Below, piece after piece: positions 10,106 to 57,632 of a stretch of DNA of 64,000 nucleotides. The position numbers and the translations under genes were made by a program. The notes beneath the pieces are model-generated. The model had not been told where the DNA came from. It saw only the letters and a program-made list of their open reading frames with translations, and ran no database searches. Source of the stretch: Malus domestica (lineage: Eukaryota; Streptophyta; Magnoliopsida; Rosales; Rosaceae). Where the stretch lies: the NCBI RefSeq assembly GCF_042453785.1, contig NC_091671.1:6270001-6334000 (forward strand). The letters are read 5' to 3'. Each line of letters opens with the position of its first letter. Position 1 is the first letter of the stretch.

Positions 10106-11921
10106 ATGAAGAAAGTGGAACTCGTGTTCATCCCATCACCAGGAGCAGGCCACCATCTACCAACGCTGCAATTCGTTAAGCGTTTGATCGATCGCAACGA
10201 CAGAATTTCGATCACCATTCTTGCCATCCAGTCATACTTCCCAACTACTCTAAGTTCATACACAAAATCGATTGCAGCCTCAGAACCCCGAATCCGATTC
10301 ATTGATGTCCCACAACCTCAAGATCGACCTCCGCAAGAGATGTACAAGTCACGAGCACAAATCTTCTCTCTTTACATTGAGAGTCACGTCCCCAGTGTCA
10401 AGAAAATCATCACCAACCTCGTCTCCTCTAGTGCTAATAGTTCAGATTCGATTCGTGTTGCTGCTTTGGTAGTTGATTTATTCTGTGTGTCCATGATTGA
10501 TGTGGCCAAAGAACTCAATATTCCTTCTTATCTTTTCCTGACAAGCAATGCAGGATATCTAGCTTTCATGCTCCACCTTCCAATTCTTCATGAAAAAAAC
10601 CAGATTGCTGTTGAAGAATCCGATCCCGATTGGTCAATCCCAGGTATGTTTGTGACAATCACAAGTGTTTTTTAATGCGTTTAACATGAAAAGTCATAAG
10701 GGTTTCTGAGTCATAAAGACTTCTGGAGAAGCACATGCAAGTGGTTTCTTCACGAAGCATTTCAAGTCATTTTTCAGGAAGCAATTGACTTTTTAATAAA
10801 CAAAAATCAGCATGTCATATGAAATCATTTCTAGCATAGATGTTTAGAGTAAAAGTGCTTTCTGCAAAATGAAATTTCACTGTATCAAACGAGTACAATG
10901 CTATCTCCACCAAAAAAGACCAACATGTCCAATGTTTAAAGATGCGCCCCCTTAGACTTCATTGCAGTTGAAAAGTTGTGATTTCTTGGAGTTTGATTCT
11001 TGCACTGAAAATTTTCGACACTTAGGTATTGTCCACCCGGTTCCTCCAAGAGTTTTGCCTGCGGCTTTGACAGATGGTAGGCTCTCCGCTTACATCAAGT
11101 TGGCTTCAAGATTTAGAGAGACTAGAGGCATTATAGTAAACACATTTGTAGAGTTAGAGACACATGCTATCACATTGTTTTCCAATGACGACCGAGTCCC
11201 TCCAGTGTACCCAGTCGGGCCAGTGATCGACCTGGATGACGGTCAGGAACATTCCAACCTAGACCAGGCACAGCGCGACAAGATCATCAAATGGCTTGAT
11301 GACCAGCCTCAGAAATCTGTTGTGTTTTTGTGTTTTGGTAGCATGGGAAGCTTTGGGGCAGAGCAAGTCAAGGAAATAGCTGTAGGGCTTGAACAAAGTG
11401 GGCAGAGGTTTTTATGGTCCCTGCGCATGCCGTCACCCAAAGGCATAGTCCCAAGTGATTGCTCAAATCTTGAAGAAGTTTTGCCAGATGGGTTCTTGGA
11501 GAGGACCAATGGGAAGAAAGGGTTGATATGTGGGTGGGCCCCACAGGTGGAGATCCTGGCCCACAGTGCAACCGGAGGGTTCTTGTCGCACTGCGGGTGG
11601 AACTCGATATTGGAGAGCTTGTGGCATGGCGTCCCTATTGCGACGTGGCCCATGTATGCAGAGCAGCAACTCAATGCTTTTAGGATGGTGAGGGAGTTGG
11701 GGATGGCGTTGGAGATGAGGCTGGATTACAAGACAGGCAGCGCTGATGTGGTGGGGGCGGACGAGATTGAGAAGGCTGTGGTTGGTGTGATGGAGAAGGA
11801 TAGTGAGGTGAGGAAGAAGGTGGAAGAGATGGGAAAGATGGCTAGAAAAGCTGTGAAGGATGGAGGGTCTTCATTTGCTTCTGTTGGGAGATTTATTGAG
11901 GATGTGATTGGTCAGAATTAG
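10106..11921 (+). CDS. UGT71K: UGT-A: UDP-glycosyltransferase, UGT71 family (2 exons)
   Basis: Exons 10106-10643 and 11026-11921 give 477 residues, normal for family-1 plant UGTs. The intron (382 bp, GT-AG) splits Gly180 in phase 1. In the N-terminal acceptor domain, His16 of PSPGAGHH is the expected catalytic base and Asp124 of LVVD its likely partner. The C-terminal donor domain holds a full 44-residue PSPG box at 350-393, starting WAPQ, with HCGWNS, and ending AEQ. A terminal Gln usually means UDP-glucose. The expected activity is O-glucosylation of small phenolics or hormones in the cytosol. From memory it resembles apple UGT71K1, reported on phloretin, but the subfamily and substrate are inference. 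It carries GHHLP where B, C and D have GHLV. ATG 10106 (MKKVEL) is chosen because it aligns with the other copies; an in-frame ATG at 10049 would add 19 residues. A dead OTP81-like gene lies tail to tail downstream. Confidence 0.93.
10677..10895. repeat. MITE-like insert in the UGT-A intron
   Basis: About 215 bp bounded by GCGTTTAACAT and TGTATCAAACGA, which are imperfect inverted ends. It is also present in the introns of B and C and absent from D, whose intron is only 175 bp. Internal pieces (AGAAGCACATGCAAG, AAAAGTGCTTT) are of the kind found in plant hAT-like MITEs. The target duplication was not resolved. Confidence 0.55.
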
Positions 11922-12401
11922 GGTTTTAAGTAGTATGGGTTGTTAATTTTTTAAGTTTAAGAACTCATGAATGTACTAATTTTTCCTTGTTCTTGTATGT
12001 TGATTATGAATTTATCAGCTTGTAATTTATATGTTTTAGTTCTACAATGATAAATCAAACAAAACGATTTTGTAAATTTGTTAGGAAAGAGGGTTTTGGA
12101 GTTTGTGATATTGAGCCTCCACGTTGTCGGATGAGATTTAAGTTCAACTCTCGCGGATGAAAGTAGTTGAATAACATTGCTTACAGAAAACGGGATTTTG
12201 GTTATCACATATTAATCAATGACATAATGCATATTAAGGATGGTTGGGAACCATATGAAAAATATAGATCAAGAAGCTTCCAGAGGTTTTACAAATTGAC
12301 TTCATTTCTTGCAGACCAAGAGCTTCAGTTTATCATTTATTCATTTCTTGCAGGCCATCCTTGCTAGCAAATCAACCATCTCCTGCAACTAAAAGTCAAT
12401 G
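11922..12401. other. 3' flank of UGT-A
   Basis: Likely 3' UTR and terminator region followed by spacer. Sequence from about 12000 (TTATGAATTTATCAGC) recurs after B (25787 on), C (about 32038) and D (about 35568). No gene is seen before the PPR pseudogene begins. Confidence 0.6.
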
Positions 12402-13834
12402 CTAATGAAGTTTCAATCTTGCTGTTAACGTTTTCGGCTCCAACTCAAGCATATGGCTACACGCCTTTTCAGCAAGCTGAACATTCCCATGAAGTCCAAA
12501 GGCCCGAAGAACAGCCCCCCATACAGAAGCAGTAGGAGCTATTGGCATTTTCTCAATCAACTCTATAGCTTCCTCCAGATTTCCAGAACAACCTAAAATA
12601 TCGACCATGCAAGCATAGTGCTTTACACCAGGCACAACCCCGAAAACTGGCTCCATTTGAAAGAGAAACGTTCTTCCTTCGTCCACCAATCCAGCATGGT
12701 TGGTGAGTGTCATGGAATTGGGCTTCACCTTGGTTTCTAGCATTCTTGAGAAACAATCCAATGCATCCCTCCCTTTCCCATGCATTGCCAGAGCAGCAAT
12801 CATAGCACTCCATACGAACACATCTCTTCTTTCCACTGATTTAAACACCTCAAGTGCCTTATCCAGATCCCCACACTTTGCATACATGTTGATAAGCGAG
12901 GTTGTGAGGTGACAATTCATCTTCATACCCTGCTTCTTTGTGTAAACATGTATCAACCCACCAAGACAATTGCTCTCAATTGAGCACAGGCTGCCAGAGT
13001 ACTAACTAGAGTGACATCGTCAGGTTTCTGGCTCTTCCTTTTCTGCAAGTCATGAAAATCGCCAAAGCCTCCTTTGGCTTGTCACTTTGTTCATAAGACG
13101 AAGTGAGGACATTCCATGCAGCAATGTCTTGACCAGGCATTGCAGCGAAAACCCACCAAGCCTCATCATAATTTCCTGACTGAGCATACCCATCAAGCAT
13201 TGTAGTCCACGAGAAAATATCCTTCTCCGGCATCCTATCAAACAATCATTTCGCTTCCTCAATACTCCCACATATCACATACATATCAAGCATAGCATAG
13301 CATTGTTCAAAGTCAAGTTCTCTCCAATTTCATTCCTTTCAATACACGAACAAATCCACCTCCCAAACTCCAAATCCACCTTCTTTGCGCAAGCTGACAA
13401 CACACTCACCATCATCACATCATTCGGCTTCACATTCTCCGCCTCCATCTCCGTAAACAACTCCAAGGCCTCCTCTGGACAATTCCCTTGCGCAAAAGCC
13501 GTGATCATAGAATTCCAAGACACAACATCTTTCTTAGTAGTCTTCACGAAAACCTGCCGTGCCAAATCTAAATCCCCGCACGATCCATACAAATGAACCA
13601 GCGAATTGAAAATTTAAACGTCCGAACCAAGCGAGGCCTTTATCACCATGCCATGAAACCCTCTTCCGAGCTCAAAAATCCGGAGCTCTGAAGCCACATT
13701 GATCATAAACGGGTAAGTAAAAAAATTGGAACTTTCCATACAGCGATAAAGCATTTCCAAAATTACAAGGATGCTTTCAGTCGGGTCGGTGCTCGACGCA
13801 TAAGCGTGAATGAGGGTGTTCCAGGAGTAGAGAT

Positions 13835-14273
13835 TGTTAGAATATGAGCATGAGTATGAATTGGTAAACTTGGTTGTAGGATTAGAGATTGAGTAGGAAG
13901 TCTTGTTGGGAATGAATTTGTAAATCCATGTTGTAACTGGACTGCTATTTGGGATGAATTGGTATTCTATATGGATCTTAATAGGAGAATCCTTATAGAA
14001 TTTGGCTAAGATTGTATAGTATATATATGGTGGCCTCTGCTCTTGCAGTGTGTACTCAATAAAAGACTAAGACCTATTATTAGTTGAGAGTCTCGTTCAC
14101 TGAAGAGAGGAGAAGGTGCACCACGACTTTGCTGCAGAAATCAGACATGGCAGCAGCTTCGAACTCTTCTGCAGATATGTTTTCTCTCTGTGCATTGCTT
14201 TATGGTTTATGGTTTTGTGTTTTGATCACGGTAACTTGCTTTGCATGATCCTGGTGTTGTGTTTATTCTAACA
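13835..14273 (+). repeat. 5' LTR of the 13835-17719 element
   Basis: 439 bp, TG...CA ends. It contains a TATATATA run near 14020 and an AATAAA signal near 14058. Confidence 0.85.
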
Positions 14274-14275
14274 TG

Positions 14276-14629
14276 TGGTATCAGAGCCAATCCCTGGCCG
14301 GAAGTGTGCCGATGAGGACGTCGGGCCCCTAAGGGGGGTGGATTGTGACATCCCACATCGGCCAAGGAAGTGATCCTTAAATGTATATTCTCATCCCTAT
14401 CTAGCACGAGGCCTTTTGGGAGCTCACTGGCTTCGGGTTTCGTAGGAACTCCGAAGTTAAGCGAGAAGGAGGTCAGAGCACTCCCAGGATGGGTGACCCA
14501 CTGGGAAGTTGCTCGTGAGTTCCCAAAAACAAAACCGTGAGGGCGTGGTCGGGGCCCAAAGCGGATAATATCGTGCTACGGTGGTGGAGCGGGCCCGAGA
14601 AATGGTCCGCCCCAGGCAGGGATGTGACA
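14276..14629 (+). mobile_element. Cassandra TRIM segment (internal domain + one LTR with 5S-like region)
   Basis: From the primer-binding motif at 14276-14288 the sequence follows the short Cassandra interior to a polypurine tract (AAGGGGGGTGGAT). A 286-bp LTR follows at 14344-14629 (TGTGACATCC...GATGTGACA). The LTR holds a 5S rRNA-like region at about 14410-14530, with box A AGTTAAGCG (14455-14463) and box C GGATGGGTGACC (14487-14498). A second TGGTATCAGAGCC follows at 14632-14644. Only one Cassandra LTR is present and its interior starts exactly at the copia primer site, so this is not a plain nested insertion. Confidence 0.85.
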
Positions 14630-17280
14630 AATGGTATCAGAGCCTTGGGTTCATAAATTATAAGTTCTGTGATTAAAACCAATAGGTTCCAAAACCATAA
14701 ATAATATTGAGGAAAATATATCTTCATTGCCGCGTTAGGGAATCGAACACAGGTTCTAGTATAATGCCTTGCGAATAACGAAAAAACATGTTTGAAAAAT
14801 ATAACCTTTTGAATTTCAAAGGATGTTACGGTTGGATTTTCTGCAAATCCAAGGGAAGGGGTTTTCTTTCCGATTGGGTCTTTTCGAGTAAGAACATTAA
14901 CCAACAATACATGCTTCTGAGTTACAATCTTACAACTGATATGATCAATTTGAATGGTTATTCCGCTGCACTGTTTAAAAAATTGGATCTGTGCAAGGTA
15001 TGTTTGATAAATTGCAAAGTTTTATTCTTGCCTTCTTAACGGTTGTTCTGCAAGATTGAGTCCAGGGTTTATATTAGATCTTAAAGGATAAGATTATGAT
15101 AACAAAATCTATATGGATTCAATTGAATTGAAACTGTTTTGCATAAATTTTAGACCTTGGGTGTTCGATCATGTGTTATCCGCAATTATTTTGAAATCTG
15201 CAGATTACTAATGCACCTTTATGTTTTCTGTTAAACCATGAATGATGGTTATCATGCATGAGACATCTCTTGACTGTCTGTTGTTGCATATCTTGTCATG
15301 GTTTTCGCTAAGTTTTGATAAGTCAATTTTTCTATGTATGCTTATCAACTATATGTTGTTAAGTCTATATGTATGATTTATTGATGAGAGTTGTGATGTG
15401 CTAAACTGCAAAAGGAAATCAGGAACCTAACTGGTTCATATTTGTGATTTCTTCTGCAGCATCCGCCATGTCTCTCAAGACTTTGAACTTAGCTTATATA
15501 CCAACTCTCAGCTGAAGGTGTCTTATAATACACAAGACAAGAGTTGGGATATAGATGAGCTCATCGCACAATGTGTTCAAGAGGAGACTCGGCAAAAGCT
15601 AGAAAGAGGCAAGGATGTTGAGACTGTGAATTTTGTGCAAGTAGGAAAGGGGAAGAAATTCAACAATGCTGGAAATAATTCAGGTAAGAATTTCAAGTAC
15701 TCCAAACCTTCTGATAAGACTGGTACTTCTACTAAAATATTTGATATTTCTAAAGGGTCTAACAATCTTAAACCAAAAGTTAAAAATGTTGCCAAGCTTA
15801 AGTGTTTTTTTTCTGCAAAACTCGAGGTCATCTAAGAAAGGATTGTGAATTGTTTAAGGATTATTTGAGAGCTAATGGCAAAGAGGTAGTTAATGTCTGT
15901 GAAGAGTCTTTTGATCAGTGGGAGTAGTTTGTTTTTCTGTTTTACAAAGAGCAATTGCTGCATTAAGGACAATTGGAAAATAAAGTTTGAGAAGTGTTGC
16001 TACTGTGAAGTTCGAAGAGCTGGTGTGGCAGTTTTGTTCTTCTCTAAAGTTAAGTTTATGTTTAGCTAGTTTAATTATCAATTAGTATAATTGTTAGCTA
16101 GGTTTATTGCATTCAGAGATTCAATTTTTGTAATTGATTGGTCTGATATATATATGTTTCCGCTACTGAGTATTGGTACTCATCTAATAAATGGTATGTA
16201 ATTCTTGAAAATCAGATCAGAGACATGAAACATAAAGCTTACATCTTGTATAATTTTAAATTCCTGATATGATGTTTCAATAACAGTCTTTTCCCAAGGC
16301 TCGTTACTTTAAAATTTTAAAGTTTTGCAGTTTTGGATGGTGGTCTTATTGTAGAGGAAGTTTTGTTTGATGCTTTGGAAACAGTTTGGCTGTTTTAAGC
16401 TTATGATTAGTAAATCGTTTTAAGTCAAGGTTATGTTGCTTTCCTATAAGATCGATTTATGTTTTGGTCTTTTTGAAAAGTGGGAGCATATTATGTGATT
16501 GACTGTTTAATATCAGTTTATGTTATGAGTCATATTTGCAGTCTGGATATGTGTGAACTTAGAATCAATACTGCATTTTGGTTGTGGTTTATGATTCTCT
16601 GTTTCCATGTTTTGGAGTGTAATAGAATGATGGTCATAACGATGGATTCTCAGGTGAGGCTCTGCAGTCACTTCTTATAAATTGGAGAAGTTCATGTCTG
16701 AAATTGATCTCATGTTAAAGTGGGAGAAAATGTAATAATATAAACATGAGATTGGGTGTTTTTTTACGGTGAATGGTTAAGTCCAATTAGAATAAGAAAG
16801 CTTTATGAGAAGCTGTGAACAAATCCTTGTTTGTGAAGGGTTCTGTTAAAAATATTTGAACTGATATGGCTTGGAAAACATAAGTTGTTTTCTATAAGGA
16901 TTGTAATAGGAAATCCTTGTCAAGTTATAAGGACATATATATGTTTTGGATTCAGATTGATGCTTGAGAATCTTTGTGATTTGACTTGAGCAGTTGGTTG
17001 AATTCATATATTGGTAATTCTTTATATTGGAATGAATTACTAGTTGATAATTTTACTATCTGTTGGACTTAATTGTTTCGAATTAAGTTAAGGAATAGTG
17101 GGAGTGGATATTTAGGTCCACTGATGTCAATTTGATCATAATGTTATAAGTGCAGATTTAACATAAGCAATCTGAGGGCTTTAGACTGATTATGATGTAG
17201 CTCAAAGGGGCGTAGTGATCACCCTATTATAGTCGTAATCGAACTAGTTTTCTCGGTTCATACTTGCTCAAGTGGGAGAA

Positions 17281-17719
17281 TGTTAGAATATGAGCATGAG
17301 TATGAATTGGTAAACTTGGTTGTAGGATTAGAGATTGAGTAGGAAGTCTTGTTGGGAATGGATTTGTAAATCCATGTTGTAACTGGACTGCTATTTGGGA
17401 TGAATTGGTATTCTATATGGATTTTAATAGGAGAATCCTTATAGAATTTGGCTAAGATTGTATAGTATATATATGGTGGCCTCTGCTCTTGCAGTGTGTA
17501 CTCAATAAAAAACTAAGACCTATTATTAGTTGAGAGTCTCGTTCACTGAAGAGAGGAGAAGATGCACCACGACTTTGCTGCAGAAATCAGACATGGCAGC
17601 AGCTTCGAACTCTTCTGCAGATATGTTTTCTCTCTGTGCATTGCTTTATGGTTTATGGTTTTGTGTTTTGATCACGGTAACTTGCTTTGCATGATCCTGG
17701 TGTTGTGTTTATTCTAACA
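17281..17719 (+). repeat. 3' LTR of the 13835-17719 element
   Basis: 439 bp, about 99% like the 5' LTR by eye. It is followed by the GAGAT target duplication and then by the 5' part of the PPR pseudogene. Confidence 0.85.
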
Positions 17720-18057
17720 GAGATTTGGTTGGGGAATTTGGTCCAACACTTGGCGGGCATAGTCGAGGCTGGAGAAGGAAGAGAGGGCACAGACGGTGAT
17801 AAGCTTGCTGGCGGAGTAGGGGTCGAAGAGAAGGCCTGTACGGAGCATTTGGGAGTGGACTTGCTTCAGCTGCTTGATGCTGGTGCAGTGGTCGATTGAG
17901 GAAAGAGGTGGGTCGCTTGAGAAACGAAGGTCGTTAGTGGCGGTTGGGGATGTAGGGTTTGTGGGTGACGTGGCAGAGATATAAGGGGGTGCTTAGAGTT
18001 GCCATCTCTTCTGTGGTCACTCTCGCACTAGCTGTTTTCACTTGAGGTTTTTTAAAA

Positions 18058-18210: not shown

Positions 18211-18219
18211 TTTTTAAAA

Positions 18220-18770: not shown

Positions 18771-18940
18771 AAAAGAAAAACCAAAAAATCAATTCCACTT
18801 TAATAAAACACGGTATAAAAATAGACCTGATTATGAAATTTATTATTTGAATGAGAATTAAGAACAAGAAAATTCAAAGTCAAAGTATTAAAAAAAATTC
18901 TCGTTTGAAAAATCCACCAAGTTTGACTACTATTTTTTAA

Positions 18941-21869: not shown

Positions 21870-23688
21870 ATGAAGAAAGTGGAACTAGTGTTCATCCCAG
21901 CACCAGGAGCAGGCCACCTTGTACCAACGCTGCAATTCGCAAAGCGTTTGATCGATCGCAACGACAGAATTTCGATCACCATTCTTGCCATCCAGTCATT
22001 CTACCCAACCACTCTAAGTTCATACACAAAATCGATTGCAGCCTCAGAACCCCGAATCCGATTCATTGATGTCCCACAACCTCAATATCGACCTCCGCAA
22101 GAGATGTACAAGTCACGAGCAAAGATCTTCTCTCTTTACATTGAGAGTCACGTCCCCAGTGTCAAGAAAATCATCACCAACCTCGTCTCCTCTAGTGCTA
22201 ATAGTTCAGATTCGATTCGTGTTGCTGCTTTGGTAGTTGATTTATTCTGTGTGTCCATGATTGATGTGGCCAAAGAACTCAATATTCCTTCTTATCTTTT
22301 CCTGACAAGCAATACAGGATATCTAGCTTTCATGCTCAACCTTCCAATTCTTCATGAAAAAAACCAGATTGCTGTTGAAGAATCCGATCCCGATTGGTCA
22401 ATCCCAGGTATGTTTCTGACAATCACAAGTGTTTTTTAATGCGTTTAACATGAAAAGTTACAAGTGTTTCTAAGTCATAAAGACTCTTTCTGGAGAAGCA
22501 CATGCAAGTGGTTTCTTCACGAAGCATTTCAAGTCATTTTTCAGGAAGCAATTGACTTTTTAATAAACAAAAATCAGCATGTCATATGAAATCATTTCTA
22601 GCATAGATGTTTAGAGTAAAAGTGCTTTCTGCAAAATGAAATTTCACTGTATCAAACGAGTACAATGCTATCTCCACCGAAAAAGACCAACATGTCCAAT
22701 GTTTAAAGATGCGCCCCCTTAGACTTCATTGCAGTTGAAAAGTTGTGATTTCTTGGAGTTTGATTCTTACACTGAAAATTTTCGACACTTAGGTATTGTC
22801 CACCCGGTTCCTCCTAGAGTTTTGCCTGTGGCCTTGACAGACGGTAGCTGCTCCGCTTACATCAAGTTGGCTTCAAGATTTAGAGAGACTAGAGGCATTA
22901 TAGTAAACACATTTGTAGAGTTAGAGACACACGCTATCACATTGTTTTCCAATGACGACCGAGTCCCTTCACTGTACCCAGTCGGGCCAGTGATCGACCT
23001 GGATGACGGTCAGGCACATTCCAACCTAGACCAGGCACAGCGCGACAAGATCATCAAATGGCTTGATGACCAGCCTCAGAAATCTGTTGTGTTTTTGTGT
23101 TTTGGTAGCATGGGAAGCTTTGGGGCAGAGCAAGTGAAGGAAATAGCTTTAGGGCTTGAACAAAGTGGGCAGAGGTTTTTATGGTCCCTGCGCATGCCGT
23201 CCCCCAAAGGCACCGTCCCAAGTGATTGCTCAAATCTTGAAGAAGTTTTGCCAGATGGGTTCTTGGAGAGGACCAATGGGAAGAAAGGGTTGATATGTGG
23301 GTGGGCCCCACAGGTGGAGGTCCTGACCCACAGTGCAACCGGAGGGTTCTTGTCGCACTGCGGGTGGAACTCGATCTTGGAGAGCTTGTGGCATGGCGTC
23401 CCTATTGCGACGTGGCCCATGTATGCAGAGCAGCAGCTCAATGCTTTCTGGATGGTGAGGGAGTTGGGGATGGCGTTGGAGATGAGGCTGGATTACAAGA
23501 CAGGCAGCGCTGACGTGGTGGGGGCGGACGAGATTGAGAGGGCTGTGGTTGGTGTGATGGAGAAGGATAGTGAGGTGAGGAAGAAGGTGGAAGAGATGGG
23601 AAAGATGGCTAGAAAAGCTGTGAAGGATGGAGGGTCTTCATTTGCTTCTGTTGGGAGATTTATTGAGGATGTGATTGGTGAGAATTAG
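21870..23688 (+). CDS. UGT71K: UGT-B: UDP-glycosyltransferase, UGT71 family (2 exons)
   Basis: Exons 21870-22407 and 22793-23688 encode 477 residues. The intron is 385 bp and splits Gly180, as in copy A. The catalytic His16 (PAPGAGH), Asp124 and a complete PSPG box (350-393, WAPQ to AEQ, HCGWNS present) are all in place, so it should be active, most likely with UDP-glucose. Differences from A are scattered: FYPTT for YFPTT near residue 44, QYRPP in the acceptor-side loop, EVLTHSA in the PSPG box, and Trp for Arg after LNAF. ATG 21870 is the only in-frame start; an upstream short frame ends in TAG. A 2.0 kb solo LTR begins 80 bp past the stop and may fall in the 3' UTR. The acceptor substrate cannot be read from sequence. 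Confidence 0.93.
22440..22660. repeat. MITE-like insert in the UGT-B intron
   Basis: The same insert as in UGT-A (10677-10895) and UGT-C, at the same place in the intron, bounded by GCGTTTAACAT and TGTATCAAACGA. Confidence 0.55.
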
Positions 23689-25781: not shown

Positions 25782-25984
25782 TTGATTATGAATTTATCAG
25801 CTTGTAATTTATATGTTTTAGTTCTACAATGATAAATCAAACAAAACGATTTTGTAAATTTGTTAGGAAAGAGGGTTTTGGAGTTTGTGACATTGAGCCC
25901 CCACGTTGTCGGATGAGATTTAAGTTCAAATCTCGCGGATGAAAGTAGTTGAATAACATTGCTTACAGAAAACGGGATTTTGTA

Positions 25985-27179
25985 AATTCATCTTCATACC
26001 CTGCTTCTTTGTGTAAACATGTATCAAGCCACCAAGACAATTGCTCTCAATTGAGCACAGGCTGCCAGAGTACTAACTAGAGTGACTTCGTCAGGTTTCG
26101 GGCTCTTCCTTTTCTGCAAGTCATGAAAATCGCCAAAGCCTCCTTTGGCTTGTCACTTTGTTCATAAGACGAAATGAGGACATTCCATGCAGCAATGTCT
26201 TGACCAGGCATTGCAGCGAAAACCCACCAAGCCTCATCATAATTTCCTGACTGAACATACCCATCAAGCATTGTAGTCCACGAGAAAATATCCTTCTCCG
26301 ACATCCTATCAAACAATCTTTTCGCTTCCTCAATGCTCCCACATTTCACACACATATCAAGCATAGCATAGCATTGTTCAAAGTCAAGTTCTCTCCATTT
26401 TCATTCCTTTCAATACAAGAACAAACCCACCTCCCAAACTCCAAATCCACCTTCTTTGCGCAAGCTGACAACACACTCACCATCATTCGGCTTCACATTC
26501 TCCTCATCCATCTCCTTAAACAACTCCAAGGCTTCCTCTGGACAGTTCCTCTGCGCAAAAGCCGTGATCATAGAATTCCAAGACACAACATCTTTCTTAG
26601 TAGTCTTCACGAAGACCCACCATGCGAAATCCAAATCCTCGCATGACCCATAGAAATGAACCAGAGAATTGAGAATATCAACATCCGAACCAAGCGAGGC
26701 CTTTATCACCATGCCATGAAACCCTCTTCTGAGCTTCAAAACTCGGAGCTCTGAAGCCGCCTTGATCACAAACGGGTAAGTAAACTTATTGGGACTTTCC
26801 ACACAGCAATAAAGCATTTCCAGAAGTACAAGGATGCTTTCAGTCGGGTCGGTGCTCGACGCATAAGCGAGTATGAGGGTATTCCAAGATAAGAGATTTG
26901 GTTGAGGAATTTGATCGAACACTTGGCATGCATAGCGAGGCTGGAGCTGGAGAAGAGGGCACAGGTGGTGATAAGCTTGCTGGTGGAGTAAGGGTCGGAG
27001 AGAAGGCCTGTACAGAGCATTTGGACGTGGACTTGCTTCAGCTGCTTGAAGCTGGTGCAGTGGTCGATTGAGGAAAGAGGTGGGTCGCTTGAGAAATGAA
27101 GGTCGTTAGTGGCGGTTGGGGATGGAAGGTTTGGTAGGTGACGTGGCAGAGAGATAAGGTGGGTGCTTAGAGTTGCCAT
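25985..27179 (-). pseudogene. OTP81: OTP81-like PPR editing-factor pseudogene, copy 2
   Basis: The ATG at 27179 opens the same OTP81-like N-terminus (motif FKQLKQVHVQMLCTG, then SDPYSTSKLIT), followed by PPR repeats such as [14 protein letters not shown] and [19 protein letters not shown]. At least two frame changes separate 26766-27194, 26410-26922 and 26077-26364. Everything C-terminal to the repeat at about 25985 is gone: the sequence jumps from the UGT 3' flank (ending ACGGGATTTT) straight into the PPR middle, a deletion of about 700 bp relative to copy 1. The E and DYW regions are absent. The functional protein is a plastid editing factor with an N-terminal targeting peptide; this copy cannot supply it. 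Confidence 0.85.
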
Positions 27180-32489: not shown

Positions 32490-32880
32490 CAGTAATGTCA
32501 ATTATTTGCTAGTAACACGGTGTCGACGCTTAATCCTCTGCGGTTTCAACTAAATTGAAGAAACAATGACACATGTTTGGGTTACATGATGCAAATGAAC
32601 AAATTCGGTATATCCTGTATATCGGTTTCATCATGCTTTAATAGAGATTCAAACAGATTCAACTCAATATTAACAAACTAACAAACTCTTTGCATTTGGA
32701 TGATTAAGTTTAAAATGAGGATTAATATCGTTTTGTTTACGAGGATTTTTACTGAGTGAACGAAATAACATTTTCATTTTGGTGACTTTGATCCAACACA
32801 GTTGATTTCACTAATCCAGACCTATCTTCCTCTAAATTCTCTAAACCATACAATCCTAGTGCAACCAAACTCGAATCTCG
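32490..32880. repeat. Third copy of the PH1 3'-flank repeat
   Basis: From GTCAATTATTTGCTAGTAA to CCATACAATCCTAGTGCAACC this matches 36450-36820, and its later part matches 56410-56625; both of those stand downstream of PH1 genes. No PH1 gene follows here, so the segment was carried along when the C/D unit duplicated, or PH1 was lost. Confidence 0.7.
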
Positions 32881-33874: not shown

Positions 33875-35486
33875 ATGAAGAAAGTGGAACTAGTGTTCAT
33901 CCCAGCACCAGGAGAAGGCCACCTTGTATCAGCACTGCAGTTCACAAGGCGTTTGATCGATCGCGATGACAGAATTTTGATCACCATTCTTGCCATCCAG
34001 TCACCCTTCCGGACCACTATAAATTCATACACAGAATCGATTGCAGCCTCAGAACCCCGAATCCGAGTCATTGATGTCCAAGAACCTCAAGATCATCAAC
34101 CTCCACAAGAGACGCACCAGTCACCAGAAAAATTCATCTGTCTTTACATTGAGGGTCACGTCCCCAATGTCAAGAAAATCATCACCAACCTCGTCTCCTT
34201 CAATGCTAATAGTTTGGATTCGATTCGTGTTGCTGCATTGGTGGTTGATTTCTTCTGTGTGTCCATGATTGATGTGGCCAAGGAACTCAATCTTCCTTCT
34301 TATCTTTTCATGCCAAGCAATGCAGGATATCTAGCTCTCATGCTCCAACTTCCAATTCTTCATGAAAAAAACCAGGTTGCGGTTGAAGAATCCGATCCCG
34401 AATGGTTAATCCCAGGTATGTTTGTGACAATCACAGGTGCTTTTGAATTAACCCCTTTAGCACCAACAAGACAAAAGTGTTCAATGTTTAAAGACACGTT
34501 GTAACAGCAAATTTTTAGACTTCATTCCAATTGAAAATTTTTGATTTCTTGGAGTTGGATTCTAACGCTTTGAAAATTTTCGACAACTAGGTATTGTCCA
34601 CCCGGTTCCTCCTAGAGTTTTGCCGATGGCTTTGACAGATGGTAGCCGCCCTGCTTACATCAAGTTGGCTTCAAGATTTAGAGAAACTAGAGGCATTGTA
34701 GCAAACACATTTGTAGAGTTAGAGACACATGCTATCACATTGTTTTCCAATGACACCCGAATTCCCCCGGTGTACCCAGTTGGGCCAGGGATCGACCTGG
34801 ATGACGGTCAGGCACATTCCAACCTAGACCAGGCACAGCGCGACAAGATCATCAAATGGCTTGATGACCAGCCTCAGAAATCTGTTGTGTTTTTGTGTTT
34901 TGGTAGCATGGGAAGCTTTAGGGCAGAGCAAGTGAAGGAAATAGCTTTAGGGCTTGAACAAAGTGGGCAGAGGTTTTTATGGTCCCTGCGCATGCAGTCA
35001 CCCAAAGGCACAGTCCCAAGTGATTGCTCAAATCTTGAAGAAGTTTTGCCAGATGGGTTCTTGGAGAGGACCAATGGGAAGAAAGGGTTGATATGTGGGT
35101 GGGCCCCACAGGTGGAGGTCCTGGCCCACAGTGCGACCGGAGGGTTCGTGTCACACTGCGGGTGGAACTCGATCTTGGAGAGCTTGTGGCATGGCGTCCC
35201 TATTGCGACATGGCCCATGTATGCAGAGCAGCAGCTCAATGCTTTTAGGATGGTGAGGGAGTTGGGGATGGCGTTGGAGATGAGGCTGGATTACAAGACA
35301 GGCAGCGGTGACGTGGTGGGGGCGGACGAGATTGAGAGGGCTGTGGTTGGTGTGATGGAGAAGGATAGTGAGGTGAGGAAGAAGGTGGAAGAGATGGGAA
35401 AGATGGCTAGAAAAGCTGTGAAGGATGGGGGGTCTTCATTTGCTTCTGTTGGGAGATTTATTGAGGATGTGATTGGTGAGAATTAG
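33875..35486 (+). CDS. UGT71K: UGT-D: UDP-glycosyltransferase, UGT71 family (2 exons)
   Basis: Exons 33875-34415 and 34591-35486 give 478 residues. One extra residue lies in the QDHQPPQET loop near position 74. The intron is only 175 bp because it lacks the MITE-like insert of A-C, and it is in the same phase. His16 (PAPGEGH), the LVVD aspartate and a complete PSPG box (WAPQ to AEQ, HCGWNS) are present. The acceptor half is the most diverged of the four ([24 protein letters not shown]), while the donor half is nearly identical to the others. Gene conversion or a recent shared origin of exon 2 would explain this. It is the best candidate for a different acceptor range. It lies nearest PH1. Confidence 0.93.
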
Positions 35487-36449: not shown

Positions 36450-37378
36450 AACGTCAATTATTTGCTAGTAATCACACTGTTGAAACTTGATCATCTGCGG
36501 TTTGAACTAGATTGAAGAAAAACTGACACATGTTTGGGTTACATGATGCAAACGAACAAATGCGGTATATCCTGTATACGGCTACATCATGCTTTAATAG
36601 AGATGCAAACAGACTCAACTCAATACTAACAAACAAACTCTTTACACTTGGATTTGGATGATTAAGTTTAAAATGAGGACTAAAATCGTTTTGTCAATGA
36701 GGATTTTTATGGAGTGAACGAAATAACATTTTCATGGCGACTTTGATCCAACACAGTTGATTTCCCAACCTATCTTCCTCTAAATTCGCTAAACCATACA
36801 ACCCTTAGCAACCAAATTCGACCAGATGCGCTCTGTTAGCACCTTTATAAAGTTCACACAGCAACACAAAACTTCTCAAAACTAGTTGTATAGCTACAAA
36901 CACGAAGACAACACGACTAATAAGGTTGATTCAACTCCAAGACATCGAAATTCCTTGACCAAAGCACAGAAATTCAAAAACTATACCGACAATCTTGATC
37001 GAAAAAACACTCGTAAAGCATCCAGTTTCATGGAAAATGTAACTCTATTCACTCCAAGAATGCAAATTCTACAAGCACCAATAAGTGAACACAGCTAACA
37101 CAGAATCAAGACTCCATTTTCACAATTTACAACACCAAAGTTTAAACCTTTTGGCAAAAATCATACGAATTGCCCTTTCAATCACACAAAATATCATCTA
37201 CATACGAAAAAAGCAACAGAGAAACAAAATTCAGCCTACATTGTCCAAATTCGACAGCAAGAAAACAAGAAAAGCTCCGATTTTTATCAAACACGACAAC
37301 TATTACATCAAGTTTAAGGGGAAAAAACACAAATTATAGTCATATTATTACTGTACCATGAAAATCGAGAGTTTATGA
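36450..37378. other. 3' flank of PH1 copy 1 (duplicated block)
   Basis: Matches 56410-57194 over most of its length. No independent gene; short open frames here are not conserved between the two copies. Probably contains the PH1 3' UTR. Confidence 0.55.
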
Positions 37379-37816
37379 TCACTGTCGGCTACTATCGTAA
37401 TCGACGACCTCGGAATCCGCGAGCGATCTGGAGTGCTGGACGATGGACCGTCCGATCGAGTTGATCCACTCCTCCTTCTCCTTCTCCGAATCGGCGATGA
37501 AGTACATCGTATCATGATTAGTGGTGGAGAGCTCGAAGGCGCACGGCTTGTGCACCACGTCCTCGGCGCCCTTCACCGTCAGGCACGTGCCGACCGGGAT
37601 CACGCCGCGCGGCGTCGACGAACGGGTCACGTAACTATCCTTGAACCAGAACAGCTTCCCCTGTTTCAAGACGAACCAGCGGCGCCGCCACGTCTTGATG
37701 TAATCGCCTTGTTTGGTCAGCCAGGTGGCGCGTTCAGGGTTGGACCAGAACTCGATTCCGGTGTAGTCTTCCGGGCTCGGTTCTTGGCCCGTAGCCGCCC
37801 GCCACAGGCCCTCCAT
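37379..37816 (-). CDS. PH1: PH1-type pleckstrin-homology protein, copy 1
   Basis: A single-exon gene of 145 residues, the usual size of plant PH1. The PH domain spans about residues 28-125: LTKQGDYIKTWRRRWFVLK is the basic beta1-beta2 loop that contacts phosphoinositide head groups, and Trp117 of EEWINSIG is the invariant helix tryptophan. The N-terminal MEGLWRAATGQ and C-terminal SEVVDYD tails are typical of the family. Arabidopsis PH1 (At2g29700) binds PI3P and acts on late endosomes, from memory. It lies on the strand opposite to UGT-D, tail to tail. It differs from copy 2 (57195-57632) by one residue (Glu12/Asp12). By eye about ten base differences exist, nearly all silent, so both copies appear selected. 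Confidence 0.93.
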   Translation of the reverse strand: MEGLWRAATGQEPSPEDYTGIEFWSNPERATWLTKQGDYIKTWRRRWFVLKQGKLFWFKDSYVTRSSTPRGVIPVGTCLTVKGAEDVVHKPCAFELSTTNHDTMYFIADSEKEKEEWINSIGRSIVQHSRSLADSEVVDYDSSRQ

Positions 37817-38624
37817 TTTTTTACTTGGGCGGCGCGTGAGGTGGGTTTGTGTGGGCAGAGTTGAGGAATTGGTCGGAAGTGAGACCGCGGAGGGAGAGAA
37901 AGGTTTTATGTTTTTCTGTCCGGAAACAGAAACCGGTTTTTTGTTTGTTTAATTTCGCAAACCGAGACGGCCGGTTGATATCAAACGCTGTTCTGTCCCG
38001 TTGTGACCGCGGTTCAATTTGCTTAGGTGGCTTTGAAGCTGTGTACGTGGTAACATGTGTGCTACTAGAAAGGTCGCATGTTACAAGAACACTAATCTAC
38101 ACTAAATAAATCGAAGGGGCTGTTTGAATTCGAAATACAGTAAGTTGAAGATAAAGACTTTAACTACTAGAATGATTGATTACTTTCACTCGTAATCTAA
38201 ATCTTTTATTTTCGTAATGTAAAGTTTTGAAACACATTAATGCATAAATGAATTTTATTGTGAGTACATGCGAAGATAAAAGTAAATGAGAGCATTGATC
38301 CCTTGCAACACAATAGAATGTTTGGTTCATGAAATTAACAGTTCTTTAAAGTTGGTATATGAGTTACCGACTACTATTACATTTTAGAGATATTTTTGTT
38401 CATTTGTAACTGAAATTTTTTAGGCATGGATGACGAAAACGTTATATATTTGTTGAGTTCAATGCCTAATTATTGATGACACATTGTGTGGCTTAGCTCA
38501 ATCTTCTCTTCCCTTAGAGTAGAACATCCTCTACCCCGCTAAGGTAGAATGTCATTGAACGTGCTTAATTTAAAAAATTTTATGTACAAGTTGGCAATAA
38601 AACTGATGTTCCGCATTTTGTCAA
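37817..38624. other. PH1 copy 1 promoter side, duplicated
   Basis: Upstream of PH1, strongly matching 57633-58400. It includes the likely 5' UTR and promoter (minus strand). The 86-codon plus-strand frame at 37849-38109 recurs in copy 2 (57666-57926), but I read it as a by-product of duplication. Confidence 0.5.
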
Positions 38625-42900: not shown

Positions 42901-44650
42901 AACCTAAAGCCTATTCAACCACTAAACACCCTATTCCCTCTTATATTTCTCCAGATTATCTTCCTAGTACTTATCTCCAAGCCTTAAAACACCCTCACTG
43001 GAGACAGGCCATGCAGGAGGAATTTAATGCATTGGTTAACACAAGAACTTGGTCTCTTGTTCCTTCTCACCCATCTTAAAATCTTGTTAGATGTAAATGG
43101 GTGTTCCGAATTAAAAGAAAAGTTGATGGCACTATTGATATATATAAGGCTCGTTTAGTAGCCAAGGGTTTCCATCAACAGGAAGGCTTAGACTACAGAG
43201 AAACTTTCAGTCCTGTGGCAAAACCAGTGACCATAAGGCTTCCTCTCACACTTGCATCTCAGTATGATTGGTTTCTTAATCAGTTAGATGTTAGTAATGC
43301 CTTTTTGCATGGAACTTTATCTAAGAATGTGTTTATGCAGCAACCATCCGGTTTTCAAGACCCTACTAAGCCTAATCATGTCTACAAGTTACACAAGAGT
43401 CTTTATGGACTCAAGCAAGCTCCTAGAGCTTGGCATGAAAGGCTTCATGATGTACTTAAATCTATGGGATTCCATGGCTCACAGAATGATCACTCTCTCT
43501 TTGTCAAGAATGATCATTCTCTGGTGTTTATCCTTGTCTATGTTGATGACATCTTGGTCACAGGCCCATCTTCACAAGCTTGCAATGACACAATAGCTCA
43601 ACTGAGTGCTCTTTTTCCAATCAAGGATCTGGGTTCTCTTCATTTTTTCCTTGGCATTGAGGTCAAAAGGTCATCTTCTGGTATTTTTATATCACAAACC
43701 AAATATATCCTTGACTTGCTTACTAAGACAAACATGGCAGGTGCAAAACCATGTGCTACACATCTCAGTACATCTAAACTGGATCATTCCTCTCCCATGC
43801 TTTCTAATCCAAAAGAGTACATATCCATTGTAGAAGGTTTGCAATACCTTACTTGGTCCAGACCAGATATTTCCTTTGCTGTTAACTTGGTCTGTCAGTT
43901 CATGCATCAACCAAGACAATCTCATTTGCAGGCAGTTAAAAGAATATTGAGATATTTGAAGGGCACACTTGATCTAGGTCTCTGGTTTCCAAAAACTTCA
44001 AGTCCTCTCACTATTAATGCCTTCTCAAATGCTGATTGGGCAGGGTATGCCTTGGACAGAATATCAACAAGATGTTTTTGCATTTTTTAGGGCAACTCTC
44101 TTATTAGTTGGAGTGCTAAAAAGCAAACAACCTAGCTCGATCATCCACTGAAGCAAAGTATCGATCTCTAGCTAACATTGCTGCTGAGATTTCCTAGCTT
44201 TGCAAATTACTTGTTGATGTTAGTGCGTCTCTACCTTGTCTAAATTGTGGTGTGATAACATTTATGCGATTTCCTTAGCCAAGAATCCTTTATTTCATGC
44301 ACAGACCAAACATGTGGAGATTGACTACCATTATATAAGGGAAAAAGTTCTCCTCTAATGTTGTCACTGATCAGTTTGTGTGTTCACATGATCAAATTGT
44401 AGATATCTGCACTAAATCTATATCCAAGTCTTGTTTTCTGTTGCTCAGAGACAAACTATCACTTCGGTTGCCTACGTTCAGTTTGAAGGGGCATATTAAG
44501 GATAGTTTACCTTGATTTTCTGTTGTAATTTGTTATTGGACAGTTATAGGACAGTTATAGGTCTGTTTTGATGAGTTGTCAAATGTATAGCTCTCTGTAT
44601 AAATACTATATGTACTCTAATTATTTTCCAATGAAAAACAGTTCTCAATA
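39955..44650 (+). mobile_element. Ty1/copia element, older, broken
   Basis: Short LTRs (39955-40120, 166 bp; 44494-44650, 157 bp) are flanked by the duplication GTCAT at 39950-39954 and 44651-44655. The empty site AGAAGTCATGACC exists in the paralogous block at about 58703. Parts appear in normal order: gag-like (about 40240-41330), integrase (about 41480-42460), and reverse transcriptase with RNase H (about 43080-44440; motifs SLYGLKQAPRAW and YVDDILV). A primer site TGGTAT follows the 5' LTR. There are around half a dozen breaks. LTR divergence by eye is roughly 7% plus one length change, so it is much older than the elements at 492 and 13835. Short LTRs suggest the Ale/Retrofit lineage. 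Confidence 0.88.
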
Positions 44651-44766
44651 GTCATCACCTTTTAAGTCTACGCGGTGAAGACCAGATTCTTACGCGTCTT
44701 TGATTAGTTGAAATACATTCTCTCAACTGTGTCACAAAATTTCCATTTTCAAAGAAGAGATCGATC

Positions 44767-45045
44767 ATGGCGCTGGCGGTGGTAGGTGGAGCCGCTCTTT
44801 CGGGTTTCTTCCAGCAAGTATTTGTGAAGTTGGATTTTCAGGAGGTCAAGAACTTCATCAGAGGAAAGAAACTGACTGATGGGTTGCTGAAGAAGTTGAG
44901 AATCAAGTTGACGTCTGTCAGTGTTGTTTATGATGATGCCGAGCAAAAGCAATTACGTAACCCACATGTGAAGCTGTGGATGCACGAGCTTAAAAAGGCA
45001 GTCCTTGATGCTGAAGACCTGATCAAGATAGAAGTGTTAATCAGC
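44767..45045 (+). pseudogene. Truncated CNL resistance-gene start (Rx-N fragment)
   Basis: From ATG 44767 this matches the first 90 or so residues of the intact CNL at 58827, including GGAALSGFFQQVFVKLD and YDDAEQKQLRNPHV. The 5' leader (44656-44766) also matches. Around AEDL three residues are missing, and soon after TEVL-equivalent KIEVL the similarity stops, at about 45045. The frame runs on to 45108 through unrelated sequence. There is no NB-ARC or LRR part. A transcript, if made, would encode only a coiled-coil fragment of up to 113 residues. Confidence 0.8.
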
Positions 45046-45269
45046 TCATTACCACGGGTCAACGCTTGTGATATATTGCAATCCATCACGAGCATTGTGC
45101 TTTTTTAGTAATCTGGATGTGATAAAAATCTTAGTTTCTACTACAGACTATGCATGTTGTCAAATGTAAGATAAACACATATTGTGTCCGTGGTAGATTG
45201 AGATCTAACACCACATTCAGTACCACATCGAGGGGATGGATTTGATGGATTATCAGCTTCTTCATCCAC

Positions 45270-52464: not shown

Positions 52465-54130
52465 TTTATTAGGGAGAATGACAAGTCATCTAAGTCTGCT
52501 ACTGTTAATAATTCTGTTACTGTAAATTAACTGATTGTATTAGTTGTGATTAGTTAAGATAGTTATAAAGTAGTTAAGGGTATCTATGTAAATAGCCAAA
52601 GGCTATATATATTCCTAGACAATGTGTAAAGTTCTCAGTCAAGTAAATACAATCAAGAAAACTTACTGTTGAAGTTTTCTGTTTCTCAATCAATTGGACA
52701 TTAGTAATGCCTTTCTTCATGGAGACTTAAAGGAGGATGTCTACATGCAACAACCCCCTGGTTTTGTTGATCCCTTACACCCTACATATGTGTGTAAGTT
52801 GAGGAAATCGTTGTATGGCCTCAAACAAGCTCCTCGAGCTTGGTTTGATAAACTGTTCCAAGCTCTTCACTCTCTTGGATTCACCCAATCATCCTCAGAT
52901 GCTTTTTTATTTGTTCTCAATGGTCCTCAGTTAGTCATTGTCCTTGTCTATGTTGATGACATTCTTGTCACCGGACCCTATCCTCACCTCTGTCAACACT
53001 TCATTCAGCAACTTGGGGCTCAATTTCCAGTAAAAGACCTTGGTCTTCTTCATTATTTATTGGGATTAGAAGTACATCGATCTTCACAGGGTATATTTCT
53101 CCATCAAACAAAGTATTTATTGGATCTTCTCAAGAAAACAAATATGGAGGGTGCAAAACCTTGTTGCACTCCCCTTGGCTCTAAGAAATTAGATCACAGT
53201 GGCCATTTTCTGTCCAATCCTACTGAATATCGCTCCATTGTTGGTGGTTTACAATATCTTACTTGGACTAGACCCGACCTTGCTTTTGTTGTGAACCAAA
53301 TCTGCCAATTCATGCATGCTCCCAGGGAACAACATCTCCAGGCAGCAAAAAGGGTTCTCAGATTTCTCAAAGGCTCTATCTCACATGGTGTGTGGTTCAC
53401 TAAAGGTTCTGTCCATCTTTCTGCCTACTCGGATGCCGACTGGGCTGGCTGCACAATTGACAGGAGATCAACCACTGGTTATTGTGTATTTTTGGGTTCC
53501 AATCTTATCAGCTGGAGTGCCAAGAAACAAAGTACTGTTGCAAGGTCCTCTACAGAGGCTGAATATCGCTCCTTAGCTCACACAGCTGCTGAGATAACTT
53601 GGGTTTGCAAGATTCTCAAAGATCTGCACTATCATTTCTCTACATTCCCTACTCTTTGGTGTGACAACATATCAACAATATCTTTAGCATCTAATCCTGT
53701 CTTTCATGCTCGAACAAAGCATGTTGAGATCGATTATCACTATATTAAAGAATTGGTTTTGGCTCAACTTCTCAAAGTCAAGTTCATCTGCAGTGAAGAC
53801 CAATTAGCTGATCTTCACACCAAGTCTCTGTCTAAAACCAGATTTAATTATCTGTGTTCCAAGCTTCCCATTGGCCTCATTTCTGATCCCCCTTCTCGCT
53901 TGAGGGGGTGTATTAGGGAGAATGACAAGTCATCTAAGTCTGCTACTGTTAATAATTTTGTTACTGTAAATTAACTGATTGTATTAGTTGTGATTAGTTA
54001 AGATAGTTATAAAGTAGTTAGGGGTATCTATGTAAATAGCCAAAGGCTATATATATTCCTAGGCAATGTGTAAAGTTCTCAGTCAAGTAAATACAATCAA
54101 GAAAACTTACTGTTGAAGTTTTCTGTTTCT
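52465..54130 (+). mobile_element. Partial copia element (LTRs + RT/RNase H only)
   Basis: LTRs of about 222 bp (52465-52686 and 53909-54130) share all but about three or four positions by eye. Between them is only the later half of reverse transcriptase and RNase H, readable from about 52694 (DISNAFLHGDL, SLYGLKQAPRAW, YVDDILV, YSDADWAG, STEAEYRSL). Gag, protease and integrase are absent, so the element is incomplete although the part present reads cleanly. A polypurine tract (TGAGGGGG) precedes the 3' LTR. No target duplication was confirmed. It sits inside the outer gypsy LTR. Confidence 0.8.
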
Positions 54131-56409: not shown

Positions 56410-57194
56410 TAGATTCAACTCAATATTAACAAACAAACTCTTTAAACTTGGATTTGGATGATTAAAGCTTAAAATGAGGATTAAAACCGTTTTGTTAATG
56501 AGGATTTTTATGGAGTGAACGAAATAACATTTTCATGGCGACTTTGATCCAACACAGTTGATTTCACGGCCTATCTTCCTCTAAATTCCCTAAACCATAC
56601 AATCCTTGTGCAACCAACTTCGACCAGATCCGCTCTGTTAGCACCTTTATGAAGTTCACACAGTAACACAAATCTTCTCAAAACTAGTGGTATAATTACA
56701 AACACGAAGACAACACGACTAATAAGGTTGATTCAACTCAAAGACAGAGAATTTCCTTGTCTCAAGCACAGAAATTCAAAAACCATACCGACAATCTTGA
56801 TGGAAAAAACACTTGTACACCATCCAGTTTCATGGAAAATGCAACTCTATTCAACTCCAAGAATGCAAATTCTACGAGCACGGATAAATGAACACAGCTA
56901 ACACAGAATCAAGACTCAATTTTCACAAATTACAACATCAAAGTTTAAACCTTTTCACAAAAAATCATACGAATTGCCCTCTCAATCACACAAAATGTCA
57001 TCTACATTACGAAAAAAGCAACAGAGAAACAAAATTCGGCCTACATTGTGCAAATTCGACAGCAAGAAAACAGTAGAAGCACCGATTTATCAAACAAAAC
57101 AACTATTACACCAAATTTAAGGAAAAGAGAAGGAAAAAAAAAACACAAATTATAGTCATACTATTACTGTACCATGAAAATCGAGAGTTTGTGA
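56410..57194. other. 3' flank of PH1 copy 2 (duplicated block)
   Basis: Matches 36600-37378 closely. No independent gene. Confidence 0.55.
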
Positions 57195-57632
57195 TCACTG
57201 TCGGCTGCTATCGTAATCGACGACCTCAGAATCCGCGAGCGATCTGGAGTGCTGGACGATGGACCGTCCGATCGAGTTGATCCACTCCTCCTTCTCTTTC
57301 TCCGAATCGGCGATGAAGTACATCGTATCATGATTAGTGGTGGAGAGCTCGAAGGCGCAGGGCTTGTGCACCACGTCCTCGGCGCCCTTCACCGTCAGGC
57401 ACGTGCCGACCGGAATCACGCCGCGCGGCGTCGACGAACGGGTAACGTAACTGTCCTTGAACCAGAACAGCTTCCCCTGTTTCAAGACGAACCAGCGGCG
57501 CCGCCACGTCTTGATGTAATCGCCTTGTTTGGTCAGCCAGGTGGCGCGTTCCGGGTTGGACCAGAACTCGATTCCGGTGTAGTCTTCCGGACTCGGGTCT
57601 TGGCCCGTAGCCGCCCGCCACAGGCCCTCCAT
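57195..57632 (-). CDS. PH1: PH1-type pleckstrin-homology protein, copy 2
   Basis: 145 residues, single exon, identical to copy 1 (37379-37816) except Asp12 for Glu12. The PH domain at about 28-125, with the basic KTWRRRW loop and the EEWINSIG helix, is complete, so phosphoinositide binding is expected. The upstream 0.75 kb is shared with copy 1 and probably gives similar expression. It lies 1.2 kb from, and divergent to, the intact CNL gene, as copy 1 stood before the truncated CNL copy. The ATG is fixed by homology and by the MEGLW start. Confidence 0.93.
   Translation of the reverse strand: MEGLWRAATGQDPSPEDYTGIEFWSNPERATWLTKQGDYIKTWRRRWFVLKQGKLFWFKDSYVTRSSTPRGVIPVGTCLTVKGAEDVVHKPCAFELSTTNHDTMYFIADSEKEKEEWINSIGRSIVQHSRSLADSEVVDYDSSRQ

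What the first reader, a model, noticed from the sequence alone, without database searches (positions are those of the whole stretch)
10106..57632. PH1 - UGT71 cluster - OTP81 neighbourhood shared with Arabidopsis
Three unrelated gene families sit together here: a PH1-type gene, four UGT71-type genes and OTP81-like PPR copies. From memory, At2g29700 is PH1, At2g29710-At2g29750 are UGT71 genes and At2g29760 is OTP81. If correct, the cluster has stayed together since the rosid split. That both fixes the gene identities and raises the question of why a glycosyltransferase cluster stays next to a plastid editing factor.
Basis: partly seen in the sequence, partly recalled or inferred. Interest (0 to 1): 0.75.

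Follow-up and report, generated by a model that had tools for sequence, protein, structure and literature searches.

The report
Old gene neighbourhood, broken editing-factor copies
This stretch of plant DNA holds a small family of sugar-attaching enzymes beside genes that also neighbour such enzymes in Arabidopsis, which looks like ordinary inherited gene order; the copies of the chloroplast RNA-editing gene here are broken relics, so nothing suggests that the genes stay together because they work together.

Summary
The span carries four intact UGT71-type glycosyltransferase genes (one phase-1 intron each), two intact PH1-type genes and two OTP81-like PPR copies, in 48 kb of TE-rich plant DNA. 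Papers place the Arabidopsis counterparts at consecutive locus numbers: At2g29700 PH1, At2g29730/40/50 UGT71D1/C2/C1, At2g29760 QED1/OTP81.

New here: both OTP81-like copies are broken. Copy A lacks the C-terminal quarter, carries frameshifts and stops, and is split by a young 3.9-kb LTR retrotransposon. Copy B is shorter. No match to the editing-domain tail was found in the window. They share frameshifts and lie in repeated [UGT-> <-PPR fragment] units, so they look like relics carried along by UGT tandem duplication. The linkage persists here without a working editing factor beside it, which argues against a functional reason for it. Both PH1 copies remain under strong constraint.

Orthology to Arabidopsis was not tested directly: no plant genome was searchable, and the OTP81, OTP82, PH1, UGT71C1 and UGT71B1 comparison sequences were recalled. 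A UGT73 array at a conserved syntenic position across rosids is already published. Ordinary conserved microsynteny with a modest twist; interest low to moderate.

The parts
10106..11921 (+). UGT71-type gene A; exons 10106-10643 and 11026-11921, intron 382 bp GT-AG phase 1, 477 aa
   Evidence: PSPG box
21870..23688 (+). UGT71-type gene B; exons 21870-22407 and 22793-23688, intron 385 bp, 477 aa
30130..31968 (+). UGT71-type gene C; exons 30130-30667 and 31061-31968, intron 393 bp, 481 aa (stop of the other copies not present, 4 extra residues)
33875..35486 (+). UGT71-type gene D; exons 33875-34415 and 34591-35486, intron 175 bp, 478 aa; the most diverged copy
12429..13834 (-). QED1/OTP81-like PPR pseudogene A, 3' piece, equivalent to recalled OTP81 residues 94-567; frameshifts and stops, no E/DYW tail
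17720..18005 (-). PPR pseudogene A, 5' piece with the start region
13835..17719 (.). LTR retrotransposon inserted in PPR pseudogene A; LTRs 13835-14273 and 17281-17719 (4 of 439 sites differ), 5-bp target duplication GAGAT
25983..27179 (-). QED1/OTP81-like PPR pseudogene B, ends at the equivalent of recalled OTP81 residue 400; frameshifts, 8-bp deletion
37382..37816 (-). PH1-type gene, copy a, 145 aa, single PH domain
57198..57632 (-). PH1-type gene, copy b, 145 aa, one amino-acid difference from copy a
36611..38594 (.). duplicated segment holding PH1 copy a, 91.7% to 56411-58409
56411..58409 (.). duplicated segment holding PH1 copy b

Best explanation
This is an inherited gene neighbourhood (PH1 - UGT71 - QED1/OTP81) that has expanded locally. 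A unit made of a UGT71 gene and a 3'-truncated QED1 gene facing it was duplicated in tandem, and the PH1 end was duplicated too. The UGT and PH1 copies stayed intact. The QED1 copies are passengers that decayed by frameshifts, deletion and a recent LTR-retrotransposon insertion. The UGTs most likely attach glucose to small acceptors (inferred from UGT71 relatives). PH1 most likely works as the PI3P-binding endosomal protein known from Arabidopsis (inferred). The adjacency has no functional cause: it is ancestral order that nothing has broken. Shown: gene content, intactness, lesions, repeat units. Inferred: orthology, ancestry, enzyme function.
For: UGT: 4 of 4 copies intact with GT-AG splice sites and PSPG boxes; copy C matches UGT71G1 at 475 bits, against 302 bits for the first match below the top six rows; 50-53% identity of the four copies to UGT71G1. 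PH1: 145 aa, PH domain; 78-79% to recalled At2g29700; Ks 0.099, Ka 0.003 between copies. PPR: 52-58% to recalled OTP81 in five pieces of copy A and 45% over the long piece of copy B; the control, recalled OTP82, gives 38% where OTP81 gives 58%, 32% where it gives 54%, and 31% on copy B's long piece. Arabidopsis adjacency by locus number from papers. Repeat units: UGT A and B with flanks 96.4% alike, UGT 3' flank 12000-12200 = 25782-25982 at 98.5%, PPR 12914-13835 = 25985-26898 at 93%. The copies keep the 5' end and lose the 3' end, unlike a retrocopy (inference). Frame changes at the same places in both copies. A UGT73 array at a syntenic position, found in Arabidopsis and Prunus, is published (PMC13336362, passages seen), so the kind of thing is known.
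Against: No plant genome could be searched, so reciprocal best hits and gene order in Prunus, Vitis or Fragaria are untested. The PH1, OTP81, OTP82, UGT71C1 and UGT71B1 sequences used were recalled, not fetched, and only one control editing factor was tried. UGT71 genes sit at several Arabidopsis loci and PH1 has a paralogue (both recalled), so only the PPR leg points to one locus. PPR A/B divergence is a mosaic, 11-13% in much of the 5' part and 1-2% near the 3' end, so gene conversion could have copied some shared lesions. CTF2B was not seen: no FAD-monooxygenase family among 20 translated pieces scanned, though most frames of the window were not scanned. Here PPR copies lie between UGT genes, not outside them as the Arabidopsis numbering implies.
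Confidence: 0.77

Rival explanations
1. The linkage is kept by selection: UGT71, PH1 and QED1 form a functional cluster, co-regulated or co-inherited for a shared role.
For: Three unrelated families are linked in two distant plants (window; Arabidopsis numbers).
Against: Both QED1 copies in the window are broken, and the cluster persists. The known roles (endosomal PI3P binding by AtPH1; plastid RNA editing by QED1) share no evident pathway with glycosylation. CTF2B also sits inside the Arabidopsis block.
Confidence: 0.04
2. The PPR copies are not QED1 but pieces of another PLS-class editing factor that was captured near the UGTs by transposons, so the Arabidopsis match is chance.
For: Plants hold hundreds of PPR genes (established knowledge); TEs are abundant here; the OTP81 sequence was recalled and only one control factor was tried.
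Against: 58% against 38% identity for OTP81 and OTP82 over the same stretch; the match of copy A runs in order from residue 19 to residue 567, and copy B's N-terminus matches from residue 1; linkage to UGT71 and PH1.
Confidence: 0.1
3. The repeated UGT/PPR and PH1 segments are an assembly artefact in which two haplotypes were joined head to tail.
For: A heterozygous tree genome is possible (species unknown); UGT A and B are 96.4% alike.
Against: Silent divergence of 0.05-0.11 between UGT copies and 0.099 between PH1 copies is high for alleles; four UGTs with different flanks and insertions, not two blocks.
Confidence: 0.07

Closest known systems
Arabidopsis block At2g29700 (PH1) - UGT71D/C genes - At2g29760 (QED1/OTP81)
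   Same: Same three families; PH1 on one side and PPR copies in the other half of the UGT run
   Different: Here PPR copies lie between UGT genes and are broken, PH1 is duplicated, no CTF2B was seen in the pieces scanned, and an NBS-LRR gene adjoins PH1
UGT73 tandem array at a conserved syntenic position (PMC13336362, passages seen)
   Same: UGT array at a shared position, reported in species including Arabidopsis and Prunus persica
   Different: Different UGT family and neighbours
UGT71B6-like cluster of Prunus mume, Pm014833-Pm014848 (PMC6274698, section 2.7 read and passages)
   Same: UGT71-type genes with near-consecutive gene numbers (10 of 12) in a rosid tree
   Different: Its neighbours are not given in what I saw, so identity with this locus is unknown
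Putative non-functional QED1 of Nicotiana tabacum (PMC9750133, section read)
   Same: QED1 relic where the factor's main target sites are gone
   Different: The tobacco gene still encodes a QED1-like protein but is not expressed; here two truncated, frameshifted copies

Membership tests
UGT family 71 | 44-residue PSPG box | tested here: met
   4 of 4 copies
UGT family 71 | More than about 40% identity to family members (naming rule, recalled) | tested here: met
   50.4-53.0% to UGT71G1 taken from the PDB match; 43-47% to recalled AtUGT71B1/C1
UGT family 71 | Nested in the UGT71 clade of a tree with UGT72 and UGT88 | not tested
   No tree built; only the score gap, for copy C
UGT family 71 | Glucosyl transfer activity | not testable with these tools
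   Needs enzyme assay
QED1/OTP81 | 15 PLS-class PPR motifs (PMC9750133) | tested here: inconclusive
   Copy A covers residues 19-567 of recalled OTP81 in several frames; copy B stops at 400; motifs not counted one by one
QED1/OTP81 | C-terminal E1, E2 and DYW domains | tested here: not met
   No match to the 171-residue tail of recalled OTP81 better than E=0.21 in the window, nor to the 142-residue tail of recalled OTP82 better than 4.6
QED1/OTP81 | Closer to QED1 than to other editing factors | tested here: met
   58 v 38% against one control, OTP82; both query sequences recalled
QED1/OTP81 | Editing of matK-214 and rpoB-811 | not testable with these tools
   No plastid genome or RNA held
PH1 | Short protein with a single PH domain | tested here: met
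   145 aa, PF00169 73.3 bits in both copies
PH1 | Orthology to At2g29700 rather than its paralogue | tested here: inconclusive
   78-79% to recalled PH1; paralogue not compared; PDB best matches are animal cytohesin PH domains
Conserved microsynteny with Arabidopsis | Same families adjacent in both genomes | tested here: met
   Window; Arabidopsis locus numbers
Conserved microsynteny with Arabidopsis | Reciprocal best hits and matching strand order | not testable with these tools
   No plant genome collection; own genome not held

The most novel reading that the evidence does not exclude
The lineage has lost QED1, and these two relics, at the gene's ancestral address beside UGT71 and PH1, are its fossils. 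The plastid genome of this plant would then carry T at matK-214 and rpoB-811. The gene's death would have let its remains be swept along by UGT tandem duplication.
Probability: 0.2. Interest if true: 0.45.

Novelty: new member of a known kind. Interest (0 to 1): 0.25.

Why it matters
It helps to anchor the identity of the UGT copies and shows that the linkage outlives the editing-factor copies found here, so it is better read as inherited order than as a functional cluster. If the plant lacks an intact QED1 elsewhere, the locus maps the loss of a multi-site editing factor to its remains and makes a clean prediction about the plastid genome. If an intact QED1 lies just outside, it is a textbook by-product of tandem duplication.

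Tried and rejected
No own genome is held. PH1 and a UGT copy A exon-2 frame were sought in bacterial/archaeal genomes and viral contigs in case plant DNA contaminates them; 0 confirmed relatives in each of 4 scans; the PPR copies were not sought there. A functional-cluster reading was rejected because both PPR copies are broken. A retrocopy origin for the PPR copies was rejected because the 5' end is kept and the 3' end lost. A novel intron in the UGTs was considered and dropped: a phase-1 intron at aligned residues 150-200 is described as highly conserved in UGTs (PMC9498546, passages seen), and this one is phase 1 at residue 180 or 181 of the raw protein. Against that, the same passages say 17 of 53 group E poplar UGTs have introns but lack the conserved one, and I did not map the position on an alignment. 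Literature for QED1 in Rosaceae: one paper holds both words, unrelated by title and abstract start; the QED1 paper's main text has 0 occurrences of six Rosaceae terms. Its supplements were not tried (supplement look-ups are capped at 0).
Full report
What was checked. The finding says that a PH1-type gene, four UGT71-type genes and OTP81-like PPR copies sit together between 10106 and 57632, as in Arabidopsis. The window has 34-41% G+C in 4-kb steps, introns, copia elements and plant gene families. ARAGORN found no tRNA genes and no whole genome is held for it.

UGT genes. Four copies lie on the + strand. Each is two exons with a GT-AG intron of phase 1 (382, 385, 393 and 175 bp) and splices to 477, 477, 481 and 478 aa without a stop. 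All four have the 44-residue PSPG box ending in Q. Copy C matches Pfam UDPGT and, among PDB chains, UGT71G1 best at 475 bits. The first six rows, which include UGT71G1 twice and UGT71AP2, score 405-475 bits; the next scores 302 and hydroquinone glucosyltransferase 272 (60 of 108 matches shown). The four copies are 50.4-53.0% identical to UGT71G1, 46-47% to recalled AtUGT71C1 and 43-44% to recalled AtUGT71B1. Copies A and B are closest (Ks 0.048), then C (Ks 0.075-0.078 to A and B), then D (Ks 0.096-0.111). Ka/Ks over the six pairs is 0.38-0.61, so constraint is present but loose. The phase-1 intron near residue 180 fits the conserved UGT intron described for eudicots (PMC9498546, passages seen), though the same passages say that 17 of 53 poplar group E UGTs have introns but lack it.

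PH1 genes. There are two, both minus strand and 145 aa, with one PH domain each. They differ by about 9 synonymous and 1 non-synonymous changes (Ks 0.099, Ka 0.003), so both look strongly constrained since duplication. The duplicated segment is 2 kb at 91.7%. A second stretch, 44650-45040 against 58705-59109 at 90%, continues the duplication into the start of an NBS-LRR gene. Recalled Arabidopsis PH1 is 78-79% identical. The PDB search with copy b gives animal PH domains, cytohesin-3 first, which names the domain and not the gene. From recall, Arabidopsis has a PH1 paralogue, At5g05710; a literature search gave 0 occurrences of that number in the 20 listed of 26 papers, so it was not compared.

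PPR copies. A tblastn of recalled OTP81 finds two copies on the minus strand. Copy A begins at 18005, is interrupted at 17720/13834 by an LTR retrotransposon with a 5-bp target duplication and LTRs differing at 4 of 439 sites, and ends at the equivalent of residue 567 of 738, so 23% is missing. Copy B runs from 27179 to 25983 and ends at residue 400. Identity is 52-58% in five pieces of copy A and 45% over the long piece of copy B, which crosses out-of-frame stretches. Both query sequences are recalled. The reading frame changes near residues 274, 352 and 383 in both copies, and both carry the same short sequence repeat at the first of these. Private lesions are in-frame stops in A and an 8-bp deletion in B. 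No match to the 171-residue OTP81 tail better than E 0.21, or to the 142-residue OTP82 tail better than 4.6, was found in the window, so no E/DYW domain appears to be here. The PDB search with the open 199-aa piece gives a synthetic PPR-DYW protein first.

How the array was built. UGT A and B with flanks are 96.4% alike. The stretch 12000-12200 after UGT A reappears 2 kb after UGT B at 98.5%, next to PPR copy B, and the PPR copies are 93% alike over 922 bp. This gives units [UGT -> <- PPR fragment]; in unit B a stretch equivalent to 12201-12913 is missing and about 2 kb is inserted. Divergence between the PPR copies is a mosaic: 4% in the first 150 columns, 11-13% over the next 450, 5% over 300, then 1-2% towards the 3' end. 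That suggests an older duplication with later homogenisation, and it weakens the inference that every shared lesion predates the duplication. The older part is about as diverged as UGT D from the rest and as PH1 a from b, so one early phase of expansion is possible (inference). The 5' end of the PPR gene is kept and the 3' end lost, the opposite of a typical retrocopy, so the copies arose at DNA level (inference).

Arabidopsis side. From papers: PH1 is At2g29700 (PMC12680889, passage); UGT71D1 At2g29730 and UGT71C1 At2g29750 (PMC6838055, passage); UGT71C2 At2g29740 (PMC5451403, passage); QED1/OTP81 At2g29760 (PMC9750133 and PMC8774829, passages); At2g29720 is CTF2B (PMC3743015, passage). UGT71D2 as At2g29710 is recalled; no held paper gave that number (0). 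Consecutive locus numbers mean adjacency (established convention). Gene strands in Arabidopsis were not available.

What it means. The simplest account is inherited gene order with local UGT expansion. A published case of the same kind is the UGT73 array at a shared syntenic position, reported in species including Arabidopsis and Prunus persica (PMC13336362, passages). In Prunus mume, UGT71B6-like genes also cluster (10 of 12 numbered Pm014833-Pm014848; PMC6274698, section 2.7 and passages), but their neighbours are not stated in what I saw. AtPH1 binds PI3P and affects where NRAMP1 sits (PMC12186567, passage); QED1 edits five plastid sites in Arabidopsis (PMC9750133). No shared pathway is apparent, and the PPR copies here cannot make the full factor, so adjacency is not evidence of joint function.

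The open point of interest. [quoted passage not shown] Whether this plant still has an intact QED1 cannot be told from the window. If not, these are fossils of that loss; if so, the duplication model would put the intact gene left of the window (inference). A search for QED1 with Rosaceae found one unrelated paper, and rpoB-811 or matK-214 occur in one held paper only.

Limits. No plant genome could be searched; five comparison proteins were recalled; one control editing factor was used; no tree was built; the species is unknown.

Noticed in passing
58827-63341: Open NBS-LRR gene of 1505 aa (Rx_N, NB-ARC, R13L1-type LRRs) whose LRR end holds near-identical 144-bp units (91-95% matches), a recent in-frame repeat expansion.
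   Followed up: partly
44650-45105: Truncated copy of the same NBS-LRR gene's start (Rx_N), next to a copia element at 39955-44650, continuing the PH1 duplication.
   Followed up: partly
490-6658: Direct repeats of 396 bp (2 differences) about 5.8 kb apart, likely LTRs of a young non-autonomous retrotransposon; no Pfam domain in 3 of its open frames scanned.
   Followed up: partly
52467-54130: A copia reverse-transcriptase frame flanked by 220-bp direct repeats (3 differences) only 1.4 kb apart, an unusually short element.
   Followed up: no
34416-34590 against 10644-11025: UGT D's intron is about 210 bp shorter than in A-C, a possible marker of an insertion in the A-C ancestor.
   Followed up: no
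12429-13834 and 25983-27179: Mosaic divergence between the two PPR relics, 13% falling to 1-2%, suggesting gene conversion across the UGT units.
   Followed up: partly
32490-32874: A piece of the region 3' of PH1 also lies after UGT C (86% to 36446-36821; its part 32655-32874 85% to 56411-56623), so a PH1-side fragment was once duplicated there as well.
   Followed up: no
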